From an uncultured Planctomycetota bacterium (GTDB taxonomy: Bacteria > Planctomycetota > Phycisphaerae > UBA1845 > UTPLA1), in contig CAADGE010000023.1 of NCBI GenBank assembly GCA_900696465.1, forward strand, positions 62,001 to 126,000: a stretch of DNA of 64,000 nucleotides, in the 5' to 3' direction. Positions 50,450 through 61,437 of the stretch are shown one piece after another. Numbering within the stretch: position 1 is the first letter of the stretch; each line of letters begins with the position of its first letter. The notes beneath the pieces are model-generated. The model was not told where the DNA came from, made no database searches, and was given only the letters and a program-made list of their open reading frames with translations. The position numbers and the translations under genes were made by a program.

Positions 50450-51799
50450 ATGAGGATCATCGCGATCGCGAATCAAAAGGGAGGATGCGGAAAGACAACG
50501 ATCGTCATCAATCTGGCGGCCTGCCTGGCGCGCGAAGGCCAGCGGACGCTCGCCGTAGACCTCGATCCGCAGGGACACTGTGCCCTGGGCCTCCTCGTCC
50601 CGGAGGAGCAGGTCGAAGTCAGTGTCGCCGATGTCCTCCTGGCTCAGCAGGACCAAGAACCGGTCGACCTGGGCCGCGTGACATGGCAGATCTCCAGCCA
50701 CTTTGACCTCATTCCTGCGAAGATCGATCTCTCCAAGCTCGAGCAGAAGCTTGCCGGCGTGCCGGGGCGCGAACAGCGGCTGGCCCGTATGCTCGATCAA
50801 GTTCGCGACAAGTATGACTTCGCCCTGATCGACACACCGCCGACCGTCGGCTTTCTGACGCAAAGCGCGCTCGCCGCGGCGGATGAAGTGATCGTCCCTG
50901 TCGACACCGGTTACTTCTCGCTTCATGGGCTTTCCAAGCAACTCGATACGATCCGCGAACTCCGCGCGGAGACGGGGCGGCATCTGTCCGTGCGCATCGT
51001 CGCCAACCTGTACGATGTTCGCACCAAGCTGGCCCGCGAAATCCTCGCCGAATTGCGAAAGCGCCACGGCGATGCGATGTTCGCGAGCTTCATCAACTTC
51101 AACACCAAGCTCAAAGAGAGCACCAGTCTCGGTCAGCCGATCACCGAGTACGACCCTGCCAGCAGCGGCTGCCGAGATTTCGTCAAATTCGCGCGCGAGC
51201 TTATCGCGCTGGGCAACGGCAAGTCAGCCGCCACCATGCCCGCTGCCGCACTGAGCACAGCGAATGCGCTCGACACGATCACACCGGCCACGCCGACGCC
51301 GTCCATTGGAACGGCCGCTGTCGCCAGCCCGCGCAGCGCTCCTGCCGCTGCGGCCTCATCAAGCGGCCAGCAGGTCCTGCTCGAACGCGCCGAGGCCCTG
51401 GCGGCCAACGCCAGCAAGCTCCTGGCTACCACTGAGACGCTCCTGGGACCCGGCCGCAAGAGCGGCTTGCCGGCTTCGACAGGCACCTCCGCTCAGCGTA
51501 CTGAGGAAAAAATCGAGTTGATCTACGGGCCTCGCGCCGTCGAACACGGCGTGGTTTTCGTCGTGGCTGCAGCCGGTGCGAACAGCGTCCGCATCGCGGG
51601 CGACTTCAACGACTGGAATCCCGATCGCACACCAATGCAACCGCTCCGCGACGGCGCCTTCTTCGCCAGACTTCCGCTGGGTCCGGGTAGATACAACTAC
51701 CGCTACGTCGTCGACGGTCACTGGATGCGCGATCCGGCCAATCCGCGAATGGAAATGAATCCCTACGGCGAGATGAACAGCGTCCTCGAACTCGTCTGA
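50450..51799 (+). CDS. ParA-type ATPase fused to a CBM48 glycogen-binding domain
   Basis: The protein has 449 residues. The first 255 are a ParA/MinD-type ATPase: deviant Walker A KGGCGKTT at residues 10-17, LDPQGHCALGLL and the IDTPPTVGFLTQSALAAADE region. An Ala/Pro/Ser/Thr linker of about 90 residues follows. The last 85 residues are a CBM48/AMPK-beta-like domain with SVRIAGDFNDWNPDRTPM, LPLGPGRYNYRYVVDGHW and MRDPANPRMEMNPYGEMNSV. ParA proteins position DNA or cell structures; CBM48 binds glycogen or starch. No parB is nearby. The fusion is seen directly in one uninterrupted frame; its role is unknown. Confidence 0.9.
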   Translation: MRIIAIANQKGGCGKTTIVINLAACLAREGQRTLAVDLDPQGHCALGLLVPEEQVEVSVADVLLAQQDQEPVDLGRVTWQISSHFDLIPAKIDLSKLEQKLAGVPGREQRLARMLDQVRDKYDFALIDTPPTVGFLTQSALAAADEVIVPVDTGYFSLHGLSKQLDTIRELRAETGRHLSVRIVANLYDVRTKLAREILAELRKRHGDAMFASFINFNTKLKESTSLGQPITEYDPASSGCRDFVKFARELIALGNGKSAATMPAAALSTANALDTITPATPTPSIGTAAVASPRSAPAAAASSSGQQVLLERAEALAANASKLLATTETLLGPGRKSGLPASTGTSAQRTEEKIELIYGPRAVEHGVVFVVAAAGANSVRIAGDFNDWNPDRTPMQPLRDGAFFARLPLGPGRYNYRYVVDGHWMRDPANPRMEMNPYGEMNSVLELV

Positions 51800-51878: not shown

Positions 51879-53693
51879 TCACACCGTTATGCTTGTGCCA
51901 TCGAAGCGAGTGAACGTAAAGCCCTCGAACGGCTCGTTATAGCAGCCGCGCTGATCCTCCAGCAGGCGGATGGCGACCATCTCGCCGAGCTTCAGCGACT
52001 CCGTGGCGTCGGATCGCCAGTGAACTCCGGCGATGTTCCGACCCATCGCAACGTTGCTGGCGAGTTTGTTCAACTCTCCGCCGACAGTGAGCGGCGGACC
52101 AACGTAAGGAATCAATTGAGTCGGATCACTCGGATTCGGCATAACGGGATTCGGAATGACAAAGCTCTCGTCGAACATCGCCTTCAGAATCGTCACGCAG
52201 GCGCCGGCCACCGTCGCATGACCCGCCCCATAAGCTGGGTGCATCGGTGATCCCTCCGGAAACTCCATCGGCAGCAGATAGCTGCCGTACTGGCTGAATA
52301 CCTGATGCACGGCTTGCGCATTGAGCGCCTCGGAATGAATCGGATAGCTGGCAAGACCGATCAGATGATTGTGAATGCGCCCTGCGAACTCCTCCGGCCG
52401 AAGCTTGCGATGCACGAACCACTTTTGATACCAGACGGTCTTGAGCGCTCGCGTGGCGACTTCGCACACAATGGTCTTTATATACGGCGGCCCAAACGTG
52501 CCGAATCCTTCCTGCGTCTGAGAAACGAAATAGGGATTACCCGGGTTGACCGGCGCACCGATGCCGCTGGAGAGAGGATCCACGCCGGTGCCGACCGGCG
52601 TCCCGAGAATCTGGCAGGCATGGAAATACGCCTGAAACAGAACGTCGATATGAACCCACTGGCCCAGGTCGCGACCGTTGAAGATGAATCGTCGCACCGG
52701 ATCAAACAATTCCGGCTGGGAGGGCACGCAGCCGTTCTGGACATTGAGCCACTGAGCATAGTGGGTCATGTAATTGTGCCCGGCTACATGAGTTCGCATC
52801 CGCTGCTCAATGTAGGCAGCGCCGAACGGACAAGGTAAGTACAGAAACTGTGAGATGTACGGCCCGGTATGGTCACCAGGCGTAAGACCTCGGAATAGCA
52901 CCTGAGGCGTTACCTGTCCGCCGATCTTCGGGCCGCGGAAATCCGACAGACCCGACAGTTCGGCGCATGCCTGCTGTGTGAGCGGGTTTGTTTCGTAAGT
53001 ATGAAAAGGCACATCGCGACACAGGGCCATCCAGTAATTTTCGACGATCTCCGCGGCCTGTTCAGCGCTGGCGAATGCGGGCGCCGGCGTCTGTGTGAGG
53101 TGCTGCGCGTCTGCGCCTTCCAGATCAAAGGCCAGCCCTGCCTGCGGATTGACAAGCCGTCTGCGAAAACTGGGCGTCGAACATCCAAGCGGTATTACCT
53201 CAAAGTCCGCCGGGTTGCCGGTGGTCAGCGCATGGAGAAACAGATTGTAAGCCGCAGGATTTACTTCTCCTCGAACGTTGTGCGGCAGTCCCTTCGTGTA
53301 ACTCCCGATCCGATTGGGATACAGCGCCTCATCCCCGTTGGAAAGATGAACCGGCAGCGGACGATCTCGTTGATTCTGCGCCGCCTTGGCGCGAACGGTG
53401 AATGCCTTGTCGGCACGCAACTCGGTATCGCCGCTGCGCACCTGAGGCGCGGATGCATTGTCACCCGACTGCCCCGAATCAGTATCTCGGTGGGAGACGC
53501 CCGGTAGTCGTTCGATTGCCGGCGAATTTTCGACGGCACCCGTGACCACGGCTGCGGCCGTCGCACTGAGAAAGGCGCGACGGGTTAATTCATTGAAGGA
53601 TGCACTCGGGGAAGCGCCGGATGCGTCAGTCGGCACGAGGGGCGGGGATACCTCGGGCTGTGAGTCGGATGGATGATCGGCTCGTCGAGACAT
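51879..53693 (-). CDS. Vanadium-dependent haloperoxidase-like protein
   Basis: The protein has 604 residues from ATG 53693. A twin-arginine signal TRRAFLSATAAAVVTG suggests folded export. The vanadate-binding regions of the algal bromoperoxidase/PAP2 type are recognisable: KWFVHRKLRPEEF (Lys and Arg), EGSPMHPAYGAGHATVAGA (general His, then AGHA where SGHA is usual) and GRNIAGVHWRSDATES (Arg and axial His). Such enzymes oxidise halides with peroxide, or act as phosphatases. The Ser to Ala change in the SGH site leaves the exact chemistry open. It is divergent from the FG-GAP gene. Confidence 0.85.
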   Translation of the reverse strand: MSRRADHPSDSQPEVSPPLVPTDASGASPSASFNELTRRAFLSATAAAVVTGAVENSPAIERLPGVSHRDTDSGQSGDNASAPQVRSGDTELRADKAFTVRAKAAQNQRDRPLPVHLSNGDEALYPNRIGSYTKGLPHNVRGEVNPAAYNLFLHALTTGNPADFEVIPLGCSTPSFRRRLVNPQAGLAFDLEGADAQHLTQTPAPAFASAEQAAEIVENYWMALCRDVPFHTYETNPLTQQACAELSGLSDFRGPKIGGQVTPQVLFRGLTPGDHTGPYISQFLYLPCPFGAAYIEQRMRTHVAGHNYMTHYAQWLNVQNGCVPSQPELFDPVRRFIFNGRDLGQWVHIDVLFQAYFHACQILGTPVGTGVDPLSSGIGAPVNPGNPYFVSQTQEGFGTFGPPYIKTIVCEVATRALKTVWYQKWFVHRKLRPEEFAGRIHNHLIGLASYPIHSEALNAQAVHQVFSQYGSYLLPMEFPEGSPMHPAYGAGHATVAGACVTILKAMFDESFVIPNPVMPNPSDPTQLIPYVGPPLTVGGELNKLASNVAMGRNIAGVHWRSDATESLKLGEMVAIRLLEDQRGCYNEPFEGFTFTRFDGTSITV

Positions 53694-53824
53694 GGTTCTA
53701 CACGGAGTAGAAGGTCTCTTGCTGTCCCCTCGCGATGGACGGCACACTTCCCATCATAACGAACGAGGGCTGCTGAAACAAGTCGATCGCTGGCATCAGA
53801 ACCCGCATTGGAGGCACTGTGGCC

Positions 53825-53854
53825 TTGAATCTTACGTATTAAAATTGGTAAGAT
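53825..53854 (+). promoter_or_regulatory. Candidate promoter of FG-GAP gene
   Basis: TTGAAT (53825-53830), 18 bases and TAAGAT (53849-53854) lie in a locally AT-rich stretch. The predicted start of transcription would be within about 10 bases of the ATG at 53866, so the message may be nearly leaderless. Confidence 0.35.
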
Positions 53855-53865
53855 TTACACTCGTT

Positions 53866-55617
53866 ATGTTCCCAGGAACCGACTCTTCTACGGGAACGAT
53901 TCATCGAAACAGCGCGCGCCTCGCGCCGCAGTTGTGTTGGGCCATCCTCCTTATCGTCACCCTGCCTGCCGGCACATTTGCAGTGGACAGCGACGGTGAC
54001 GGCATCCCTGATGAATTCGACGCCTGCCCGGCAACGCCTCCTGGCACAATGGTTGATCCATCCGGTCGTCCTGCGGCGGATTTCAATCACGATTGTGTCG
54101 TTGATGCGATGGACCTTCACGGGTTCGTGCAGCAATTGCTGACGCCGCCGGGTGACCCCGCGCCAGTCATGTACCAGACGGGTTCGCCAACAGCAGAGAT
54201 CTCGGGATACTTCGGAATCACTCTCGCCGGCGTTCCTGACGTAGACGGCGATGGACTGACCGACCTCCTGGCAGGTGCCAAACTCGAAAACCCGTCGGGT
54301 GCTCCGAACGACGCCGGCCGAGCCCATTTGTACTCCGGCAGAAGCATGACGCTGCTTCGGAGCTTCGCGTCGCCCAATCAGCAGGCGGATGGTCGATTCG
54401 GCTGGGGCGTCGGTGCCGTGCCGGACATCGACGGCGACGGCTACGGTGATGTCATCATCGGTGCGCCGCTGGAAAGCCCTGCCGGCTTTCCTCCGCAGAG
54501 TGGCCGTGCATATCTCTTCTCGGGAGCGACCGGCGCGCACCTGCACACGCTCGTCTCGCCGACTCCGAGACAGGGCGGACTCTTCGGTTACGCTGTTGCC
54601 GGCATCCGCGACCTCGATGGCGACGGATTCGGCGATGCAATCGTGGGCGGCTGGCACGAAAGCCCCACCGGCAGCCCGATCGATTCGGGCCGTGCGCACG
54701 TCTTCTCTGGTGCAACAGGCACACTGCTCTACACGATGGCTTCTCCGCAACAAACGGTAGCCGGTTACTTCGGCATTTCGGTCAGCAGCGTTCCGGATGT
54801 CAACGGCGATGCAGTGGACGATATTGTGATCGGTGCCCCCGGCGACCCACCGGGCTTCATCGGCGCAGGTCGGGCCTATGTCTTTTCCGGATCGGATGGC
54901 TCCCACTTGTCGACCCTGATTTCCGTAAACGCGGAGCCGCTCGGAAACTTCGGCACCAGCGTGAGCGGTGTTCCAGATGTCAACGGCGACGGCAAAGGCG
55001 ACGTCCTGGTCGGTGCCTCTCAGGAGACCGCCGGCGGTGTGCACGACTTCGGCGGGCGGGCCTATCTCTACTCCGGCGCGACCGGCCTGCCGCTCAGGAC
55101 GTTTCAGGCCCCGACTCCGCAGAGTTTCTCGCTCTTCGGCAGTTCCGTCGCAGGCGTGGCGGATATCGATGGTGACGGATCGGGCGACCTGATTATCGGC
55201 GCGAGTGATGAGACAGCAAGCGGCAGTCCGGCGCAAAGCGGGCGAGCGTATGTCTTCTCCGGGGCGACGGGCGCTTTGATTCGCGCATTGACTTCGCCCA
55301 ACGCCGATACCGCCGGTAAGTTCGGCTTCGCCGTTGCCGGCCTCGCTGACGCGACAGGCGACCGCCGCGGTGACGTCGCCGTCTGCGGATTGTTCGAGAA
55401 TCCCGCGCCGTATCCGAACGATTCCGGAATGATTTACCTCTTCAACCTTGCGGACTCTGATGTCGACGGCGTGCCGGATACGAACGACGTCTGCGCCAAC
55501 ACGCCGCAGGGTACGCCGGTCGATCGGTTCGGCCGACCTGCCGCGGACTTCAGCGGTGACTGCCTCGTCACGCTTGATGATCTCGAAGGATTCGTCAATC
55601 TGCTGCTGGGGCTGTAG
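53866..55617 (+). CDS. Exported FG-GAP/integrin-alpha-like repeat protein with two TSP3/dockerin-like cassettes
   Basis: The protein has 583 residues from ATG 53866. After the signal peptide (LLIVTLPAGTFA) comes a cassette VDSDGDGIPDEFDACPATPP followed by PAADFNHDCVVDAMDLHGFV: a calcium-type TSP3 unit plus a dockerin-like loop. Seven FG-GAP blades of about 65 residues then repeat the pattern FG-x-VAGVPDxDGDGxxDxxIGA with GRAYxFSGATG. The C-terminus repeats the first cassette almost exactly (DSDVDGVPDTNDVC, PAADFSGDCLVTLDDLEGFV). This suggests a calcium-stabilised extracellular propeller, possibly adhesive. Confidence 0.88.
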   Translation: MFPGTDSSTGTIHRNSARLAPQLCWAILLIVTLPAGTFAVDSDGDGIPDEFDACPATPPGTMVDPSGRPAADFNHDCVVDAMDLHGFVQQLLTPPGDPAPVMYQTGSPTAEISGYFGITLAGVPDVDGDGLTDLLAGAKLENPSGAPNDAGRAHLYSGRSMTLLRSFASPNQQADGRFGWGVGAVPDIDGDGYGDVIIGAPLESPAGFPPQSGRAYLFSGATGAHLHTLVSPTPRQGGLFGYAVAGIRDLDGDGFGDAIVGGWHESPTGSPIDSGRAHVFSGATGTLLYTMASPQQTVAGYFGISVSSVPDVNGDAVDDIVIGAPGDPPGFIGAGRAYVFSGSDGSHLSTLISVNAEPLGNFGTSVSGVPDVNGDGKGDVLVGASQETAGGVHDFGGRAYLYSGATGLPLRTFQAPTPQSFSLFGSSVAGVADIDGDGSGDLIIGASDETASGSPAQSGRAYVFSGATGALIRALTSPNADTAGKFGFAVAGLADATGDRRGDVAVCGLFENPAPYPNDSGMIYLFNLADSDVDGVPDTNDVCANTPQGTPVDRFGRPAADFSGDCLVTLDDLEGFVNLLLGL

Positions 55618-55731: not shown

Positions 55732-58700
55732 TTATTCATCGTCATTGGGGTATTTCGTCTCCGCAGGCTTCAACTCCCGTCGCCATCTTTCAGCTTTCGC
55801 ATCGTGGCCGGCATTCGGATCGGATTCATGCCATGCCTCGTAGAGCGCGATTCGTCGCTCGATCAGCGCAGCACGTTGCTCAGTCGACAAAGAGTTACTC
55901 TGTTCATCATCGTCCAAGACGGTACTCAACAAGCTCTCGGCTTCGGCAAACTGCTGCCGCGAAGTCAGAACGGTCGCCAGGTTCTTCTGCGTCGTGATTG
56001 TCGCGGGATGGGTGCGACCGCTGACCTTGCGACGCAGTTCGAGCGCCTCCCGAAAATCGGGCTCGGCTTCCTCCCAACGACGCTCCATCATCAGGGCGAG
56101 CGCGACGTTCTCCATGGCCGTAAGCGTCAGAAGGTTCTCACTGCCGTAATTGGCCCGCAGTTTGTCCCTCGATTCGCGAAACAGCACGATGGCTTCATCG
56201 CGACGGCCTTTGCGAAACAGGAAGAAGCCCATGTTGTTGATCGAGGCGAGCGTATGAGGATGATGATCGGACAAGAGCTTACGCCGCCGCTCCAGCACCG
56301 TGCGATAATAATACTCGGCTTCATCCAGCTTGTTCTGCTCGCCGAGCAGGGCCCCCAGATTGTTCATGGCCGTCATCGTATTAAGATGCGTATCGCCGAG
56401 CACTCGGCTCATCAGCTCCAGCGCTTCGCGATAGTACGGTTCGGCTTCGGTGAGTCGACCTCGCTGCTTGAGGAAGTACCCGAAATTGCTGATCGACTTG
56501 AGCGTGTCGTGGTGTGTCTCACCCAGGACGCGCCGGCGTTTCTCAAGCACCTCCCGGTAGAGCGTCTCGGCCTCGGCGTACTCGCCCATCCCCTGGTGTA
56601 CCGCCGCAAGATTGCTCGCCGCGATCAGCGTATCGACGTGCGTTTCACCCAGTACTCGCCGGCGGATTTCCAGACACTGCTCGAGATGCTGGCGGGCCTC
56701 GCCGTACTTGCCCTGCGCATCCAAGATCGTGCCCAGGTTGGCCATGCTCCGAAGCGTCTCCGGCGCCTCAGCGCCGCGCGATCTTGATCGCTCCAGTGCT
56801 TCACAAATCAACGACTCCGCCTCGCCATGCCGCTGATTGGCCGACAGCAGGATGGCAACGTTGTTCATGGCCCGGATCACGCGCGAATCGCCTGTTTCGA
56901 GAAGCTGCCGTCGAACGGAAAGCGCCTGCTCCTGCAGCGACAGGGCGACGTCGTGCCGGCCGAGTTTTTCATAGATCAGCGCCAGCGTTTCGCGAAGATC
57001 AGCGGCCACGAGCGGCTGGTTCTCGAATTCCTGATCGATGGCAGCAATCGTCGGCTTCAGGATGGCATGATCGAGCATATCGGAGGCCGCGCCGGTAAAA
57101 TCGATCTGCCCGAGCTCCCTCTGAAACTGCTCAAGTCGCTGCGACCGACGGGCCTCATCCAACCCCGTACGATCGAACGCGGCTTCCAGCTTCGATATCA
57201 TCTCCTCTCGCAGGTGCAGCCCCAGTTCCATTGGGACCACCTGCTCCAGAATCCTCGATTGGAATTGGGAGACCTGTCGGGCCTCGGCCTCTCGCTTCTC
57301 CACTAGCTGGCGCTGCGCTGCTTCGACCAGCCGGGCGTTCTCGGCTTCTTCCCGCGCGGCGATGGCGTCGCGCTTTTCCTGGCCAGCCACGTAGGCCATG
57401 CCTGCCGTTCCGATCATGCCCAGGACCAGCGCACCAAAGGCCGCCGCGCACGCCACAACGCCCGCCCGGTGTCGCCGGACGAACTTTCGCAGCCGATAGC
57501 TGGTGCTCGGCGGACAGGCGAGCACCACTTCATGATTCAGATAGCGTCGAATATCCGCCGCGAACTCCGATGCGGACTGATAACGACGCGCTGGATCCTT
57601 CTCGATGGCCTTCATGGTGATCCAGTCGAGTTCGCCTTCGAGCTGGCGCCGACGCAAGGACGTATCCGGATGGTCACCGAGTGAAACACCGGACTTGGAT
57701 GTTCGACTCCAAGAACCATCAGCAAGGCATCGAGCACTGGGCCGCGGCGGATCGTCTTCGCGAATCATCCGCAGCATCTCCGAATGACCCAGTTGCCGGA
57801 GTTGCCGGGAATCGAATGGAAGCTGATCGGTCAGAAGCTCGTAAAGGACCACCCCCAGTGAGTAGATGTCCGTTCGTGTATCGACGGCCGGTCCCTGTCC
57901 CGCCTGCTCGGGGCTCATGTATTCGGGCGTGCCGACGAAAACACCTTCCAGCGTTTGTAGCGTGGAATCCGTCAGCGGCTTCTCGATCGCCTTGGCGATG
58001 CCGAAATCAATCACCTTCGGCAGCGGACGTGCCGCATCGACCGCGACGAGGATGTTCGAGGCCTTCAGATCACGATGGATGATTCCCTTCTGGTGTGCGT
58101 GCTGAACGGCGTCGCACACCTGCAGGAAAAGTTCGAGCCGATCGTGATAGTCAAGACGCTTTTGCGTGCAGAAGTTGGTGATCGGCACGCCGTCGACATA
58201 CTCCATAACGAAGAACGGTCGCCCGGACTCTGTCGTGCCGGCGTCGAAGACGCGAGCCACACAGGGGTGCTCCATCAGCGCCAGGGCCTGTCGTTCTGCT
58301 TCGAAGCGAGAGACGATCTGACGGGAATCCATGCCCGGCTTGAGCAGCTTGAGCGCAACGCGACGCCGAAGCGGCTTTTCCTGCTCCGCGAGATATACCA
58401 CGCCGAAGCCGCCCTCACCGAGCTTGCGGCCCAGGTGGTAGGCGCCGATCGACCGACCGGTGTGGGTATCTTCCGGGAAACGGGAAGCGCGTTGCGAAAC
58501 CACGTCACACGTTGATTCGCGCGTTGCCTTGGGAGATGGTCCGATGTGCTGCAACAGATTCCGGATCCCCCGCACGCGATTCAACAGGTCATCGTGTGCC
58601 GAAAGCATCTCGGAGCTGCGGCCATCGCATATCTGACATTCCTTAAGATGTTCGCCGAATCGAGCCGCGGCATCGCCGTCCAACTCGCCTGCGTGGAACC

Positions 58701-58743
58701 GCAGAAGATCGTTGTCCGTAAGACACGCCCCTGGAAGTTGCAT
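55732..58743 (-). CDS. ZAS anti-sigma-like Ser/Thr protein kinase with TPR domain
   Basis: The protein has 1003 residues from ATG 58743 (GGAG 6 bases upstream). Residues 7-40 form a zinc anti-sigma-like motif: LLRFHAGELDGD, then His32-x3-Cys36-x2-Cys39 (HLKECQIC). The kinase domain follows at about 101-400: GEGGFGVVYLAEQ, VALKLL (Lys132), IIHRDLKASNIL, DFGIAKA and GTPEYMSPEQ. A membrane helix lies at about 427-453, with a coiled region and then at least seven kinesin-light-chain-type TPRs outside or beyond it (EARQHLEQCLEIRRRVLGET and similar). Adjacent to an ECF sigma gene, it probably controls that factor. Confidence 0.94.
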   Translation of the reverse strand: MQLPGACLTDNDLLRFHAGELDGDAAARFGEHLKECQICDGRSSEMLSAHDDLLNRVRGIRNLLQHIGPSPKATRESTCDVVSQRASRFPEDTHTGRSIGAYHLGRKLGEGGFGVVYLAEQEKPLRRRVALKLLKPGMDSRQIVSRFEAERQALALMEHPCVARVFDAGTTESGRPFFVMEYVDGVPITNFCTQKRLDYHDRLELFLQVCDAVQHAHQKGIIHRDLKASNILVAVDAARPLPKVIDFGIAKAIEKPLTDSTLQTLEGVFVGTPEYMSPEQAGQGPAVDTRTDIYSLGVVLYELLTDQLPFDSRQLRQLGHSEMLRMIREDDPPRPSARCLADGSWSRTSKSGVSLGDHPDTSLRRRQLEGELDWITMKAIEKDPARRYQSASEFAADIRRYLNHEVVLACPPSTSYRLRKFVRRHRAGVVACAAAFGALVLGMIGTAGMAYVAGQEKRDAIAAREEAENARLVEAAQRQLVEKREAEARQVSQFQSRILEQVVPMELGLHLREEMISKLEAAFDRTGLDEARRSQRLEQFQRELGQIDFTGAASDMLDHAILKPTIAAIDQEFENQPLVAADLRETLALIYEKLGRHDVALSLQEQALSVRRQLLETGDSRVIRAMNNVAILLSANQRHGEAESLICEALERSRSRGAEAPETLRSMANLGTILDAQGKYGEARQHLEQCLEIRRRVLGETHVDTLIAASNLAAVHQGMGEYAEAETLYREVLEKRRRVLGETHHDTLKSISNFGYFLKQRGRLTEAEPYYREALELMSRVLGDTHLNTMTAMNNLGALLGEQNKLDEAEYYYRTVLERRRKLLSDHHPHTLASINNMGFFLFRKGRRDEAIVLFRESRDKLRANYGSENLLTLTAMENVALALMMERRWEEAEPDFREALELRRKVSGRTHPATITTQKNLATVLTSRQQFAEAESLLSTVLDDDEQSNSLSTEQRAALIERRIALYEAWHESDPNAGHDAKAERWRRELKPAETKYPNDDE

Positions 58744-58950
58744 TGCAGACTCCAACTTGACCCGAATACGACCACGGGACGTCTCGGGCAAGTAAAGACA
58801 GGTCACATTCAGCATACCAGCCACGCCTGCCAGGCACGAATCCGTACCCGGAAGGGCAATGTTTCTTCCAAATTCCACGCTCGAACCGGCCGGGAGGCGG
58901 GTTATCTGTGGAGTAAAAAACAGAAAAGCAGCGGAAGAAACTCCGAGTGG

Positions 58951-58968
58951 CGGGGTACCCCTGCTGTC
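58951..58968 (+). promoter_or_regulatory. Shared upstream motif, copy 1
   Basis: CGGGGTACCCCTGCTGTC lies 53 bases before the start of the small exported protein. Nearly the same block precedes the metacaspase-like gene at 60184-60203. It is a candidate ECF sigma promoter element; GGGGTACCCC is also a perfect palindrome. Confidence 0.45.
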
Positions 58969-59021
58969 AGGCGTTCGCTGGACGCCGCCGGAAACAAGGA
59001 ACCCAGACACGGGAGATAATC

Positions 59022-59303
59022 ATGAGATCGCTCAAGACAACGCTGAACTCACTGACCAGTAAGTTGGTCGTCTGTGTGGCCCTGCTGGGGCTCGTGGCCG
59101 GCACCGGATGTGAGATGGATGAACTCGAATATGTAACCGGTTATAGCGATCCCTGGGGCGTCGGGTCCACCGGTTCCGGGAGCAACTCGGTGCTCTACGG
59201 CTGGGGCGAGTACACGAACAGCAACAGCGGAAACTCGTTCACCCTGAGCAGCGGGACGAATATCTCTGAATCGCTCGACAACTACTTCAGCAGCCAGTGG
59301 TAG
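59022..59303 (+). CDS. Small exported Gly/Ser/Asn-rich protein
   Basis: The protein has 93 residues from ATG 59022, with GGGAG 7 bases upstream. The signal peptide KLVVCVALLGLVAGTGC ends in a Cys that could be a lipidation site, though GTGC is a poor lipobox. The mature part has acidic and aromatic residues, then a Gly/Ser/Asn-rich region (GVGSTGSGSNSVLYGWGEYT) and ends in YFSSQW. I recognise no family. It is divergent from the kinase gene and followed by a strong terminator, so it is transcribed alone, probably from the shared motif. Confidence 0.7.
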   Translation: MRSLKTTLNSLTSKLVVCVALLGLVAGTGCEMDELEYVTGYSDPWGVGSTGSGSNSVLYGWGEYTNSNSGNSFTLSSGTNISESLDNYFSSQW

Positions 59304-59326
59304 GAACTTTTCTCACCGCAACAACC

Positions 59327-59378
59327 ACCGCAATCGCCGCGGGGCCAGACCTCCGGCGGTTGCGGTTTACGTTTTATT
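59327..59378 (+). terminator. Strong intrinsic terminator
   Basis: A 13-bp stem, 59327-59339 with 59354-59366 (one G-U pair), is followed by TTACGTTTTATT. It lies between the small exported protein and the convergent sigma factor gene. Confidence 0.8.
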
Positions 59379-59397
59379 CGGTGAAGGTCTCCCGGAC

Positions 59398-59973
59398 CTA
59401 CTCATCTTCCCCGATGAGATTCTTCAACATCTCTGAAAGCCGCTGCGTGAGGCGCCACTTGATCTTGTAAAGCTGATTAGCCGTCAATTCGTACTGCTTA
59501 CAGACATCTTCGACCGGTTTGTCATCTATGGCATATGCCGTGAAAGCGGCATAGGTCGAATCCCCTACTTCCTTGTGCAGCGCTTCCATGGCATGTCGCA
59601 GATGCTCCTCCATCCACAGTTTGTCGAAGGCCTCATCCGGCGATGGTTCTCGATCCTGGCTGCGACGGAAATCCTGCGTCTTGGCCTCATCCTCATGGCG
59701 GTCGCGGTGCAGGTTGCGGATGCGATTGTTGACCATGGTTCGAAGCCAGGACTTGAAGCGCCCGCGGCTCGGGTCGTATTCAAAGCTGCGGATGTGCTGA
59801 TGAACGGATGCCATGCAGTGCTGCACAACGTCCTCGGCGGTCGAATCATCCAGCCCGCGGAGGGTCGCGAAGCGGTGAAGCATCGGCCGGTATATGGCGT
59901 CGAAGTCCCGCCATGCGGTCGCATTGGCTGGGTCCTTGATCCGCATCAGAAGACTGGCTCGCGTCGTATCCAT
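59398..59973 (-). CDS. ECF RNA polymerase sigma factor
   Basis: The protein has 191 residues from ATG 59973; the frame continues upstream to 60777 but that part overlaps the metacaspase-like gene and is not coding. The sigma-70 region 2 segment contains WRDFDAIYRPMLHRFATLRG, AEDVVQHCMASVHQHIRSFE and GRFKSWLRTMVNNRIRNLHR. Region 4 contains KPVEDVCKQYELTANQLYKI, a helix-turn-helix. No classical anti-sigma gene is adjacent. The zinc anti-sigma-like kinase 650 bases away is the likely regulator, as in the planctomycete ECF groups linked to protein kinases. Confidence 0.93.
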   Translation of the reverse strand: MDTTRASLLMRIKDPANATAWRDFDAIYRPMLHRFATLRGLDDSTAEDVVQHCMASVHQHIRSFEYDPSRGRFKSWLRTMVNNRIRNLHRDRHEDEAKTQDFRRSQDREPSPDEAFDKLWMEEHLRHAMEALHKEVGDSTYAAFTAYAIDDKPVEDVCKQYELTANQLYKIKWRLTQRLSEMLKNLIGEDE

Positions 59974-60183
59974 CGGGGGTTTCCGCCAGAAGATCAGATT
60001 ATCCGCGATCGGATACCGCTGCAAAGCCGGGTGAGGGGGGGACCGGACGACGCTCCAGGTGTTCGCCCGTCGTGACCGCCTCGCGCCCTGTTGGCTGCTC
60101 AAGCCGGGCCTTTGAAAGGAATCCGGACCCATACGTCGGCTAACCGGCAATTTTCTACAGAATCCGCGGCAGATTCTCTCTGT

Positions 60184-60203
60184 CGGGGTGTACCCCTGTT
60201 GTC
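60184..60203 (+). promoter_or_regulatory. Shared upstream motif, copy 2
   Basis: CGGGGTGTACCCCTGTTGTC lies 64 bases before the metacaspase-like start. It matches 58951-58968 apart from two inserted bases between GGGGT and ACCCC and one C/T change. Confidence 0.45.
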
Positions 60204-60267
60204 TGTTATGCCGCGTGGCATCGCAGCGAGCAGAAAGGACCACCCTGACAGACACGAGAGGTGAATC

Positions 60268-61437
60268 ATGAACGCGAACAAGAACACACAACGACTGAAG
60301 AGTGGACGAGCCCTGAAGCGAGACCATTCCCTGGCCGTGCTCGCCGCGGTCGTGGGACTGGGCCTCTCCGCCTCTGCGGCGTTCGGCCAGTACTATGTTG
60401 ATCCCGAGTTTCCGGGATGGGTCTTCGACGCGTACAACGGCGTGTGGATCTACGTCGGTGAGACGAACACGCAGCAGCCACCGGAACAACAGACGCAGCA
60501 GCCGCAAGCCCAGCAGCAGCCGGTGGGCGGCGGCGCGCATCGGATGGTCGCCGTCGGCATCGACAACTACCTTCAGGCAAGCAGTCTGCCTTCGTGCATC
60601 AACGACGTGGACGGCTTCATCGCCGGTCTGTCGCAGGATACCGAGCGATGGAACAGCAGCAACATCTCCCGGCTGACCGATTCTTCGGCGACCAAGCAAG
60701 GCATCCGCACCGCGCTCTACAACATGGCACTGTCCGCCGGCAGCGGTGATGTCTGCGTCTTCTTCCAGTCCAGCCATGGCGGCCAGGTGCAGGGAACCAG
60801 CATGTTTCTGAGCACCTACGACGGTCAGTACTCAGACACCGAGCTGGGAACCGACCTGGCGAACTGGTTCCGGGACGATGTCACGGTCGTCGTCATCGTG
60901 GATGCCTGCTTCTCGGGCGGCATCTTCAAGGGCGATCTCAGCGATAAGCAGGCGGCGGCACGGGCCTTGAGCAACTTCAGCCAGAACGTCCTGGCGGCCA
61001 TGCAGAACGTCAAAGCCGGTCAGGTCGCACGCTTCGGCGATGACCCGACCAAGGCCGCTGGCTCGAACGTCGGCTTCATCACCGCCAGCGACTTCGACGA
61101 GACCTCCGCGGCCGGTAGTCCATACAGTCTCTTTGCCGGCAAGATGATCGACGCACTTAAGGTGAGCGACAGCGACACCAACGGCGACGGCAAGCTGAGC
61201 TTCCTTGAGCTGTTCAACTATGCCGCTCCGCGTTCCGGCACCCGCCAGACGCCGCAAGTCGCAAACGAGTCGCTGTTGTCAAGCACGATCGCGACGATCC
61301 ACAAGCCGACGGGCTCGTCGCTGACCGGTGTGTCCGGTGGTGTGTGCGGGCTTGCCGGAATGGCCCCGATGCTGGCGTGCATCGCCATGATGTCAGCCGC
61401 TGCCGGCTTCAGGCGAGCACATCGCCGCCCGCGCTGA
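60268..61437 (+). CDS. Exported caspase-family (metacaspase-like) protease with EF-hand
   Basis: The protein has 389 residues, with a GAGAGGTGA site upstream. The signal peptide has LAVLAAVVGLGLSASAAFG. A Gln/Pro-rich linker lies at about residues 68-86, then a peptidase C14 (caspase-fold) domain: MVAVGIDNYLQASSLPSCIND, catalytic His170 in FFQSSHGGQV and Cys214 in VIVDACFSGG. Residues 303-314 form a complete EF-hand loop (DTNGDGKLSFLE), recalling calcium-activated metacaspases. The C-terminus has Gly-Cys, a hydrophobic stretch (MAPMLACIAMMSAAAG) and an Arg cluster, like a surface-sorting tail. Its upstream motif links it to the neighbouring ECF system. Confidence 0.88.
   Translation: MNANKNTQRLKSGRALKRDHSLAVLAAVVGLGLSASAAFGQYYVDPEFPGWVFDAYNGVWIYVGETNTQQPPEQQTQQPQAQQQPVGGGAHRMVAVGIDNYLQASSLPSCINDVDGFIAGLSQDTERWNSSNISRLTDSSATKQGIRTALYNMALSAGSGDVCVFFQSSHGGQVQGTSMFLSTYDGQYSDTELGTDLANWFRDDVTVVVIVDACFSGGIFKGDLSDKQAAARALSNFSQNVLAAMQNVKAGQVARFGDDPTKAAGSNVGFITASDFDETSAAGSPYSLFAGKMIDALKVSDSDTNGDGKLSFLELFNYAAPRSGTRQTPQVANESLLSSTIATIHKPTGSSLTGVSGGVCGLAGMAPMLACIAMMSAAAGFRRAHRRPR

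What the first reader, a model, noticed from the sequence alone, without database searches (positions are those of the whole stretch)
55732..61437. Compact signalling locus: ZAS-kinase-TPR, ECF sigma, exported metacaspase and small exported protein
Four genes in 5.7 kb look like one regulatory unit. The kinase carries an exact His-x3-Cys-x2-Cys zinc anti-sigma motif at its N-terminus, then a complete Ser/Thr kinase, a membrane helix and TPRs. An ECF sigma gene with no separate anti-sigma lies close by. Two exported products share an upstream motif: a 93-residue protein of no known family and a caspase-fold protease with intact His/Cys dyad and an EF-hand. ECF factors linked to kinases are known in Planctomycetota; a link to a calcium-binding exported caspase-like protease is, as far as I know, not a described pathway.
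Basis: partly seen in the sequence, partly recalled or inferred. Interest (0 to 1): 0.72.

Follow-up and report, generated by a model that had tools for sequence, protein, structure and literature searches.

The report
Kinase-controlled sigma switch for exported caspase
A planctomycete carries what looks like a self-reinforcing gene switch, in which a membrane kinase with a built-in sigma-blocking domain would control a dedicated sigma factor whose few targets include an exported caspase-like protease; close relatives of the switch sit beside other exported proteins instead.

Summary
The four genes are real and as described. Sigma factor plus kinase is a common module: in the window and 40 related loci, 33 of 34 downstream kinases carry His-x3-Cys-x2-Cys; a fourth Cys completes the site, and the profile matches solved zinc anti-sigma domains. 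The "shared upstream motif" is half of a complete ECF-type promoter, GG(A/C)AGA-N16-GTAC, found three times in the 64-kb window: before kinase, small protein and caspase (0.11 expected). It also precedes their orthologs in a congener, where the small gene is unlinked, that congener's sigma-kinase operon, and a STAS-like gene in three of three congeneric genomes. So "one regulatory unit" is well supported, as a regulon rather than a conserved neighbourhood. The caspase link was found in two genomes only. In related sigma loci the divergent gene is often another exported protein (17 of 38, against 34 of 359 control genes), and a sister sigma clade has a symmetric two-way promoter, TGTGAG-N16-KGTA. 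That this sigma reads these promoters, sigma release, and protease function remain inferred. New variant of a known kind.

The parts
55732..58743 (-). ZAS - Ser/Thr kinase - membrane helix - TPR receptor (1003 aa)
   Evidence: Pfam Pkinase E 1e-42, TPR_12/TPR_10; start ATG 58743; motifs located
58627..58725 (-). ZAS (zinc anti-sigma) site: Cys7, His32, Cys36, Cys39
   Evidence: only four invariant columns among 26 kinase N-termini; zf-HC2 matched by 24 of 26 members at E<=0.5; profile hits DdvA, ChrR, RslA, RsiW in PDB, E 4.5e-6 to 2.9e-4
57769..58440 (-). Ser/Thr kinase domain
   Evidence: PF00069 residues 102-325; HRDLK, DFG
57400..57465 (-). membrane helix, N-in by flanking basic residues
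   Evidence: residues about 427-448 read from sequence; topology inferred
55864..56757 (-). TPR array, predicted extracytoplasmic
   Evidence: PF13374/PF13424, residues about 663-960; location inferred
58844..58869 (-). kinase promoter GGAAGA-N16-GTAC, starting 126 nt before the kinase ATG
58933..58961 (+). small-gene promoter GGAAGA-N16-GTACCCC; with the kinase promoter a back-to-back pair (GTTTCTTCC ... GGAAGAAAC)
59022..59303 (+). 93-aa exported protein of no known family, lipobox-like Cys (by eye)
   Evidence: no Pfam/NCBIfam hit; ortholog 47% in G001
59398..59973 (-). ECF sigma factor (191 aa)
   Evidence: TIGR02937 E 1.5e-18; 77% ortholog in G001
60168..60196 (+). caspase promoter GGCAGA-N16-GTACCCC
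60268..61437 (+). exported caspase-like (C14) protease, His170/Cys214, 389 aa
   Evidence: PF00656 E 6e-11
61174..61209 (+). EF-hand-type loop DTNGDGKLSFLE, residues 303-314
   Evidence: acidic positions invariant in 4 of 4 caspases aligned; Pfam EF-hand below cut-off
61336..61434 (+). C-terminal Cys-Gly / hydrophobic / Arg-rich tail, sorting-signal-like
   Evidence: same layout in caspases L036 and L100 and in several other cargo proteins; no NCBIfam sorting model matches the caspase

Best explanation
This is a dedicated ECF sigma system with positive feedback. The kinase is both receptor and anti-sigma factor: its cytoplasmic N-terminal ZAS domain holds the sigma factor, its kinase domain is next to it, and its TPRs lie outside the membrane as sensor. 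A signal at the TPRs activates the kinase, and phosphorylation near the ZAS domain or of sigma frees sigma. Free sigma directs RNA polymerase to GG(A/C)AGA-N16-GTAC promoters of few genes: the kinase itself, the small exported protein, the exported caspase and, elsewhere in the genome, a STAS-like protein that may feed back on the switch. The caspase is the genus-specific 'cargo' of a module that in relatives sits beside other exported proteins. Shown by sequence: domains, four-ligand ZAS site, promoter sequences, their position and conservation, the pairing of promoter class with sigma clade. Inferred: that this sigma reads these promoters, sequestration and release by the kinase, export of the products, proteolytic activity, role of STAS.
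For: ZAS: Cys7-His32-Cys36-Cys39 are the only invariant columns of 26 N-termini; PDB profile hits are anti-sigma factors at E 4.5e-6 to 2.9e-4 plus a CHAT protein, 8rot, at 1.1e-4; the model's five PDB matches are all ChrR or RslA, though at E 5.6-8. Module: 34 of 41 loci (window included, three near-duplicate pairs among them) have a kinase ORF downstream of sigma, 33 of the 34 with HxxxCxxC, 29 of 34 within 26 nt of the sigma stop. Promoter: 3 matches in 64 kb, 0.11 expected; two of these built the pattern, the third, before the kinase, came up and made me shorten GTACCCC to GTAC. With that pattern the congener locus L128 gives 3 matches, 0.01 expected: caspase (used to build it), sigma-kinase operon and second kinase (not used). 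Leave-one-out: each held-out site ranks first of 1.51 million positions. GGMAGA-N14-16-GTACCCC in the window genome and G001: 5 hits, all 5 at targets (caspase, small gene, STAS), reversed control 1 in each. STAS orthologs in G001 and G002 have the promoter; so has G002's sigma-adjacent small gene. Promoter class follows sigma clade.
Against: No transcript or binding data. In the window the sigma gene itself shows no such promoter within 700 nt, and the kinase is not adjacent to sigma; its best match in G001 is the second, non-operonic kinase (54% against 48%), so the sigma-kinase pairing is less certain than in relatives. The -35 half was recognised after the fact. Over 61 genomes GGMAGA-N14-16-GTACCCC has 31 hits against 30 for the reversed control, and GGMAGA-N16-GTACC in three congeners 18 hits (7 at targets) against 31 for the control: only position makes the motif meaningful. 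The four sites were chosen because they hold GTACCCC, which flatters the leave-one-out test, and one -35 block was set a base off in that script. With the earlier 31-mer, W_SML ranked only 19th. The regulon is seen in three genomes, in 4 to 70 contigs.
Confidence: 0.66

Rival explanations
1. The kinase activates sigma purely by phosphorylating it, as PknT/EcfP and PknS/EcfK (ECF43) do; the zinc domain is only a docking site and never sequesters sigma.
For: Same layout as Xanthomonas PknS: N-terminal extension, kinase, membrane helix, periplasmic TPRs, next to an ECF gene (PMC13147305 passages). ECF59, 61, 62 and 217, with planctomycete examples, are listed as phosphorylation-regulated (PMC8999054).
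Against: The sigma keeps an acidic region 2.2 motif that ECF43 lacks (TAED here, AAED in G001, read by eye), so it need not get a charge there by phosphorylation, and the Thr is not conserved. The four zinc ligands are conserved and the profile matches true anti-sigma domains.
Confidence: 0.25
2. Neighbours by chance: the kinase/sigma pair regulates something else, and the caspase and small gene are bystanders sharing a promoter for another factor.
For: The four-gene order is not conserved; the caspase was found next to this sigma in 2 genomes only. Genome-wide the motif is no commoner than its reversed control.
Against: Promoter before the kinase and both exported genes here and before the sigma-kinase operon, second kinase and caspase in G001, with 0.11 and 0.01 expected; it follows the small gene where that is unlinked; divergent exported genes are over-represented beside this sigma family, 17 of 38 against 34 of 359.
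Confidence: 0.1
3. Proteolytic loop: the exported caspase, with calcium, cuts the TPR ectodomain of the kinase and so tunes or ends the signal, an outside-the-cell counterpart of protease-triggered anti-sigma release (RseA, or Csx29-Csx30-CASP-sigma).
For: Protease and TPRs are predicted to share the extracytoplasmic compartment; both genes have the same promoter; protease control of anti-sigma factors is established (PMC10028731 passages). A related sigma locus is beside an exported subtilase (L038).
Against: No cleavage-site evidence; of the eight other cargo proteins scanned only one is a protease by Pfam.
Confidence: 0.07

Closest known systems
ECF sigma / Hanks-type kinase pairs (ECF43 PknT-EcfP, PknS-EcfK; groups ECF59, ECF61, ECF62, ECF217 with planctomycete examples)
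   Same: ECF sigma gene next to a transmembrane Ser/Thr kinase with extracytoplasmic sensor, TPRs in PknS
   Different: Kinase here has a four-ligand ZAS domain; sigma keeps an acidic 2.2 motif; group membership not assigned (the classification paper is not held)
ZAS anti-sigma factors ChrR, RslA, RsiW, DdvA
   Same: Zinc ligands and profile match; ChrR-like spacing of the first ligand to HxxxCxxC (recalled)
   Different: Fused to a kinase and TPRs; ChrR is fused to a cupin-like domain (PMC8999054)
Metacaspase / sigma-70 operons of Myxococcus, Sorangium, Ralstonia, Fibrobacter (PMC3501461)
   Same: C14-family protease gene beside a sigma factor gene
   Different: Here divergent, exported with a C-terminal tail, and with its own sigma-type promoter; those operons were not compared in detail
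Craspase (Cas7-11/Csx29, Csx30, CASP-sigma)
   Same: Caspase-clan protease, ECF sigma, anti-sigma and TPRs in one system
   Different: There the protease is RNA-triggered and cuts the anti-sigma protein Csx30; here the protease is a predicted exported product of the regulon

Membership tests
ECF sigma factor | Sigma-70 regions 2 and 4 only | tested here: met
   PF04542 E 8e-13; TIGR02937 spans 20-183 of 191; no separate Pfam region 4 hit up to E 1
ZAS anti-sigma domain | Four zinc ligands with HxxxCxxC | tested here: met
   C7, H32, C36, C39 only invariant columns in 26 sequences
ZAS anti-sigma domain | Detectable relation to solved ZAS domains | tested here: met
   hmmsearch hits DdvA, ChrR, RslA, RsiW; fold matches only to ChrR/RslA but at E 5.6-8; window domain alone is under Pfam's zf-HC2 cut-off (19.1 against 22.2)
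ZAS anti-sigma domain | Binds and inhibits the cognate sigma | not testable with these tools
   needs a binding assay
Hanks-type Ser/Thr kinase | Glycine loop, HRD, DFG | tested here: met
ECF43 (EcfP/EcfK) | Loss of acidic region 2.2 motif, conserved phospho-Thr | tested here: not met
   TAED in window, AAED in G001, acidic residues in most of the 41 rows by eye
STK-linked groups ECF59/61/62/217 | Group HMM score | not tested
   ECF classification models not available here
Caspase family C14 | Caspase fold profile and His/Cys dyad | tested here: met
   PF00656 42.8 bits, cut-off 21.4; H170, C214 invariant in 4 of 4
Caspase family C14 | Peptidase activity, calcium dependence | not testable with these tools
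   EF-type loop conserved, but EF-hand Pfam below cut-off
STAS domain (third target) | Pfam STAS/STAS_2 above cut-off | tested here: not met
   P0005 E 0.08; its homolog in L062 E 1.6e-5, 25.4 bits against 29.2; hence called STAS-like
MYXO-CTERM-type tail | TIGR03382/TIGR03901 match | tested here: not met
   no match for the caspase up to E 1; one related cargo (L058) reaches TIGR03382's cut-off, 17.4 against 15.85

The most novel reading that the evidence does not exclude
A new class of one-protein transmembrane sigma switch: anti-sigma domain, kinase and TPR sensor fused in a single receptor, working with a co-regulated STAS-like protein as partner switch, each copy dedicated to itself plus one or few exchangeable exported 'cargo' genes through back-to-back ECF promoters; in this genus the cargo is a secreted caspase, so a caspase is put under direct receptor-kinase transcriptional control.
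Probability: 0.3. Interest if true: 0.76.

Novelty: new variant of a known kind. Interest (0 to 1): 0.6.

Why it matters
ECF-kinase pairs are listed for planctomycetes, and a review predicts control by phosphorylation because they are usually found with a kinase and no anti-sigma gene (PMC8999054). Here the anti-sigma domain is found inside the kinase, promoter sequences are proposed for two sigma clades, and small regulons are named, so all of it can be tested in a heterologous reporter. It also offers a defined regulatory input for an exported bacterial caspase, a group whose functions are mostly unknown (general knowledge).

Tried and rejected
GTACCCC was first read as a -35 element with a CGTG -10 downstream; dropped when TGTGAG or CGTGAG was found exactly 23 nt upstream of GTA in 16 of 16 elements of the sister clade and GGMAGA sat at nearly the same distance (22 nt) in the window, making GTAC the -10. 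De novo motif sampling on 16 intergenic regions barely beat shuffled controls (10.9 against 9.9-10.3 bits; 11.5 against 10.5-11.1) and did not find GTAC. A test of the GKGTACCCC block on 14 other loci gave Fisher p 2.6e-4 with 5 of 14 under 0.05 (in L059 the best match is far from the promoter); the 31-nt version gave p 0.63. The first regulon pattern with up to 3 mismatches gave 23 hits in 61 genomes against 8 in the reversed control; the two further G001 hits (C8, C10) showed no convincing target gene. No relative of the caspase in viral contigs. The caspase structure model is poor (mean pLDDT 52) and was not used. The caspase loci of G011 and G020 hold no relative of this sigma or its ZAS domain (G020's contig is only 4.9 kb). 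Of 18 GGMAGA-N16-GTACC hits in G000-G002, the 11 away from named targets were not followed; two of them look alike (G000 C41, G001 C18) and are probably homologous sequence, unchecked.

Rows dropped: near-duplicates L040, L058, L065 were left out; L068-L071 (4 of 29 N-termini printed) were not given. The 19 loci with exported divergent gene used were picked by eye; one search is an automated version with a crude signal-peptide rule, it misses the window's own caspase, counts three loci (L043, L046, L066) that I had not picked, and includes near-duplicate pairs.
Full report
1. What is there. The window is positions 62001-126000 of contig C23 of a 4.14-Mb genome in 48 contigs. The genome has one C14 match at E 1e-3. 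The caspase has His170 and Cys214 and an EF-type loop at 303-314, invariant at those positions in the four caspases aligned. It ends in a Cys-Gly, hydrophobic, Arg-rich tail.

2. The sigma-kinase pair is a common module. Relatives of the sigma were found in 60 of 61 genomes searched. I fetched 40 loci from among the best matches. With the window, 34 of 41 have a kinase ORF within 1.5 kb downstream on the same strand; 33 of the 34 have HxxxCxxC near the N-terminus and 29 of the 34 start within 26 nt of the sigma stop. In the window the small gene lies between them on the other strand, so the usual operon is split.

3. The kinase N-terminus is an anti-sigma domain by sequence. Aligned with 25 others, exactly four columns are invariant: Cys7, His32, Cys36, Cys39. 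Of the 26 members, 24 match zf-HC2 at E up to 0.5; the window's own scores 19.1 against a cut-off of 22.2. The profile's best PDB hits are anti-sigma factors DdvA, ChrR, RslA and RsiW (E 4.5e-6 to 2.9e-4) and a CHAT-domain protein, 8rot. The AlphaFold model (pLDDT 84.6) finds only ChrR and RslA in PDB, with poor E-values (5.6-8).

4. The shared motif is a promoter. GTACCCCTGYTGTC occurs exactly twice in the genome, both here. Aligning the caspase upstream regions of window and G001 shows conserved islands in diverged sequence, GGCAGAT, GGTGTACCCC and ATGCCGYGTGG. The small gene's ortholog in G001 is unlinked, yet has the same element. All four sites read GG(A/C)AGA-N16-GTACCCC; in the window GTA lies 67 and 78 nt before the start codons. 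With a two-block model, each held-out site ranks first of 1.51 million positions; the sites had been picked for GTACCCC, so this is not fully independent. A relaxed scan then showed GGAAGA-N16-GTAC before the kinase. GGMAGA-N16-GTAC, shortened on seeing that, matches three times in the window (0.11 expected): caspase, small gene, kinase. In the 21-kb G001 locus it matches three times (0.01 expected): caspase, sigma-kinase operon and second kinase. In the window, kinase and small gene are divergent with mirror-image -35 elements GTTTCTTCC ... GGAAGAAAC. Controls against: over 61 genomes the GTACCCC form has 31 hits and its reversed control 30; in the three congeners the GTACC form has 18, 7 of them at targets, and its control 31.

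5. A further target. In the window genome GGMAGA-N14-16-GTACCCC has three hits: caspase, small gene, and one on contig C10, starting 70 nt before the ATG of a 139-aa STAS-like protein. Homologs in G001 (50%) and G002 (28%) have GGCAGA-N16-GTACT and GGAAGA-N16-GTACC upstream; in a scan of 30 STAS-like loci, four of them cut short by contig ends, these two alone showed it (the window copy, one of the four, was seen directly). STAS-like genes also lie inside five other sigma loci: L037, L045, L046, L062, L067; in L062 it sits between sigma and kinase, where the small gene sits in the window. Pfam support for STAS is weak.

6. Exported neighbours and promoter classes. Among 38 assessable sigma genes, 17 have a near, divergent, exported neighbour, against 34 of 359 other genes in the same loci (Fisher p 2e-7; crude export rule, near-duplicates included). 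Cargo differs: caspase only in window and G001 among the 41 loci, subtilase in L038, beta-helix, HYR-domain, HAF-repeat and MopE-repeat surface proteins elsewhere, several with the same kind of C-terminal tail. In eight of 19 loci TGTGAG (CGTGAG once) lies exactly 23 nt before GTA, on the cargo side and on the sigma side, 16 of 16 (L056 and L058 are near-copies). The full symmetric pattern occurs in 6 of 61 genomes, once each, always between sigma and cargo; the reversed control gave one match. [TC]GTGAG-N17-GTA occurs 17 times in 0.61 Mb of locus sequence (both strands), all 17 within 700 nt upstream of a sigma gene; the window's class, GG[AC]AG-N17-GTA, 41 times, 9 of them there, that stretch being 4.6% of the bases. 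The eight sigma factors with the TGTGAG class fall on one side of a branch with support 97/99, together with L047, which has that class facing sigma only; the window class lies on two other branches. The geometry, -35 hexamer then 16 nt then KGTA, is that of ECF promoters (AAC and CGT boxes: PMC8103513 passages; the sigmaW consensus TGAAAC-N16-CGTA is recalled). That promoter class follows sigma clade is the best evidence that these sigma factors read these promoters.

7. Distribution of the caspase link. Caspase relatives: 11 of 61 genomes at E 1e-3, 9 of 114 genomes of the order at E 1e-15, 108 in the named genome collection, of which 80 loci were kept. Beside a relative of this sigma (tblastn E 1e-4; other sigma families not tested; many loci are short contigs): only the window and G001/PLA2. 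So the link is real but was found in part of one genus; the second congener, G002, has sigma and ZAS kinase with a small, by eye exported, protein as neighbour, under the same promoter.

8. Mechanism. Most likely the kinase holds sigma by its ZAS domain, senses by TPRs outside, and frees sigma on activation, which raises kinase, caspase, small protein and STAS-like protein together. Steps shown: domains, ligands, promoter sequences, conservation. Steps inferred: promoter recognition, binding, release, export, activity. Phosphorylation of sigma as in ECF43 is the main rival; sigma here keeps an acidic 2.2 motif and the nearby Thr is not conserved in G001. PMC8999054 (section 12, on phosphorylation, read whole) notes that non-ECF43 groups keep such a motif and may work differently.

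9. Literature. Seen: PMC8999054 (section 12 whole, passages), PMC3501461 (section 13 whole, passages), passages of PMC8103513, PMC13147305, PMC8195603, PMC10028731, PMC7406223. The ECF classification of 2021, Jogler 2012 and Wiegand 2020 are not held, so I cannot say whether ZAS domains in these kinases were noted there. An exported caspase under an ECF/ZAS-kinase pair was not found in searches, all of one open-access library; some searches listed only part of their hits (20 of 22, 10 of 2,602, 10 of 25).

Noticed in passing
L051, L052, L054-L059 (sigma/cargo intergenic regions): Symmetric two-way promoter: TAC-N17-CTCACA ... TGTGAG-N17-GTA, one -35/-10 pair facing sigma and one facing the exported cargo, exact 23-nt spacing in 16 of 16; the full pattern is found once in each of six genomes.
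   Followed up: yes
L062:8686-9168: STAS-like gene (a likely regulatory protein) on the opposite strand between sigma and kinase of G014, the position the small gene has in the window.
   Followed up: partly
L038, L051, L052, L055, L057, L058 cargo C-termini; window 61336-61434: Divergent cargo proteins of different families share a Cys-rich / hydrophobic / Arg-rich tail; one matches MYXO-CTERM TIGR03382. Suggests one surface-sorting route.
   Followed up: partly
window 50450-51799 (+): ParA-type ATPase whose C-terminus looks like a CBM48/AMPK-beta-type domain (read by eye from the translation, no search made), an unusual fusion.
   Followed up: no
window 51879-53747 (-): Tat-signal protein with sub-threshold PAP2 similarity; its start overlaps the divergent FG-GAP repeat ORF 53692-55617.
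   Followed up: no
PDB 8rot/8rw5, found: A CHAT (caspase-clan) protein whose N-terminus matches the ZAS profile at E 1.1e-4: apparently an anti-sigma domain fused to a caspase-like protease; no paper found in the library.
   Followed up: partly
L054 (own genome, contig C46): Second ECF/ZAS-kinase locus of the window genome, of the TGTGAG promoter class, with a divergent exported 712-aa protein.
   Followed up: partly
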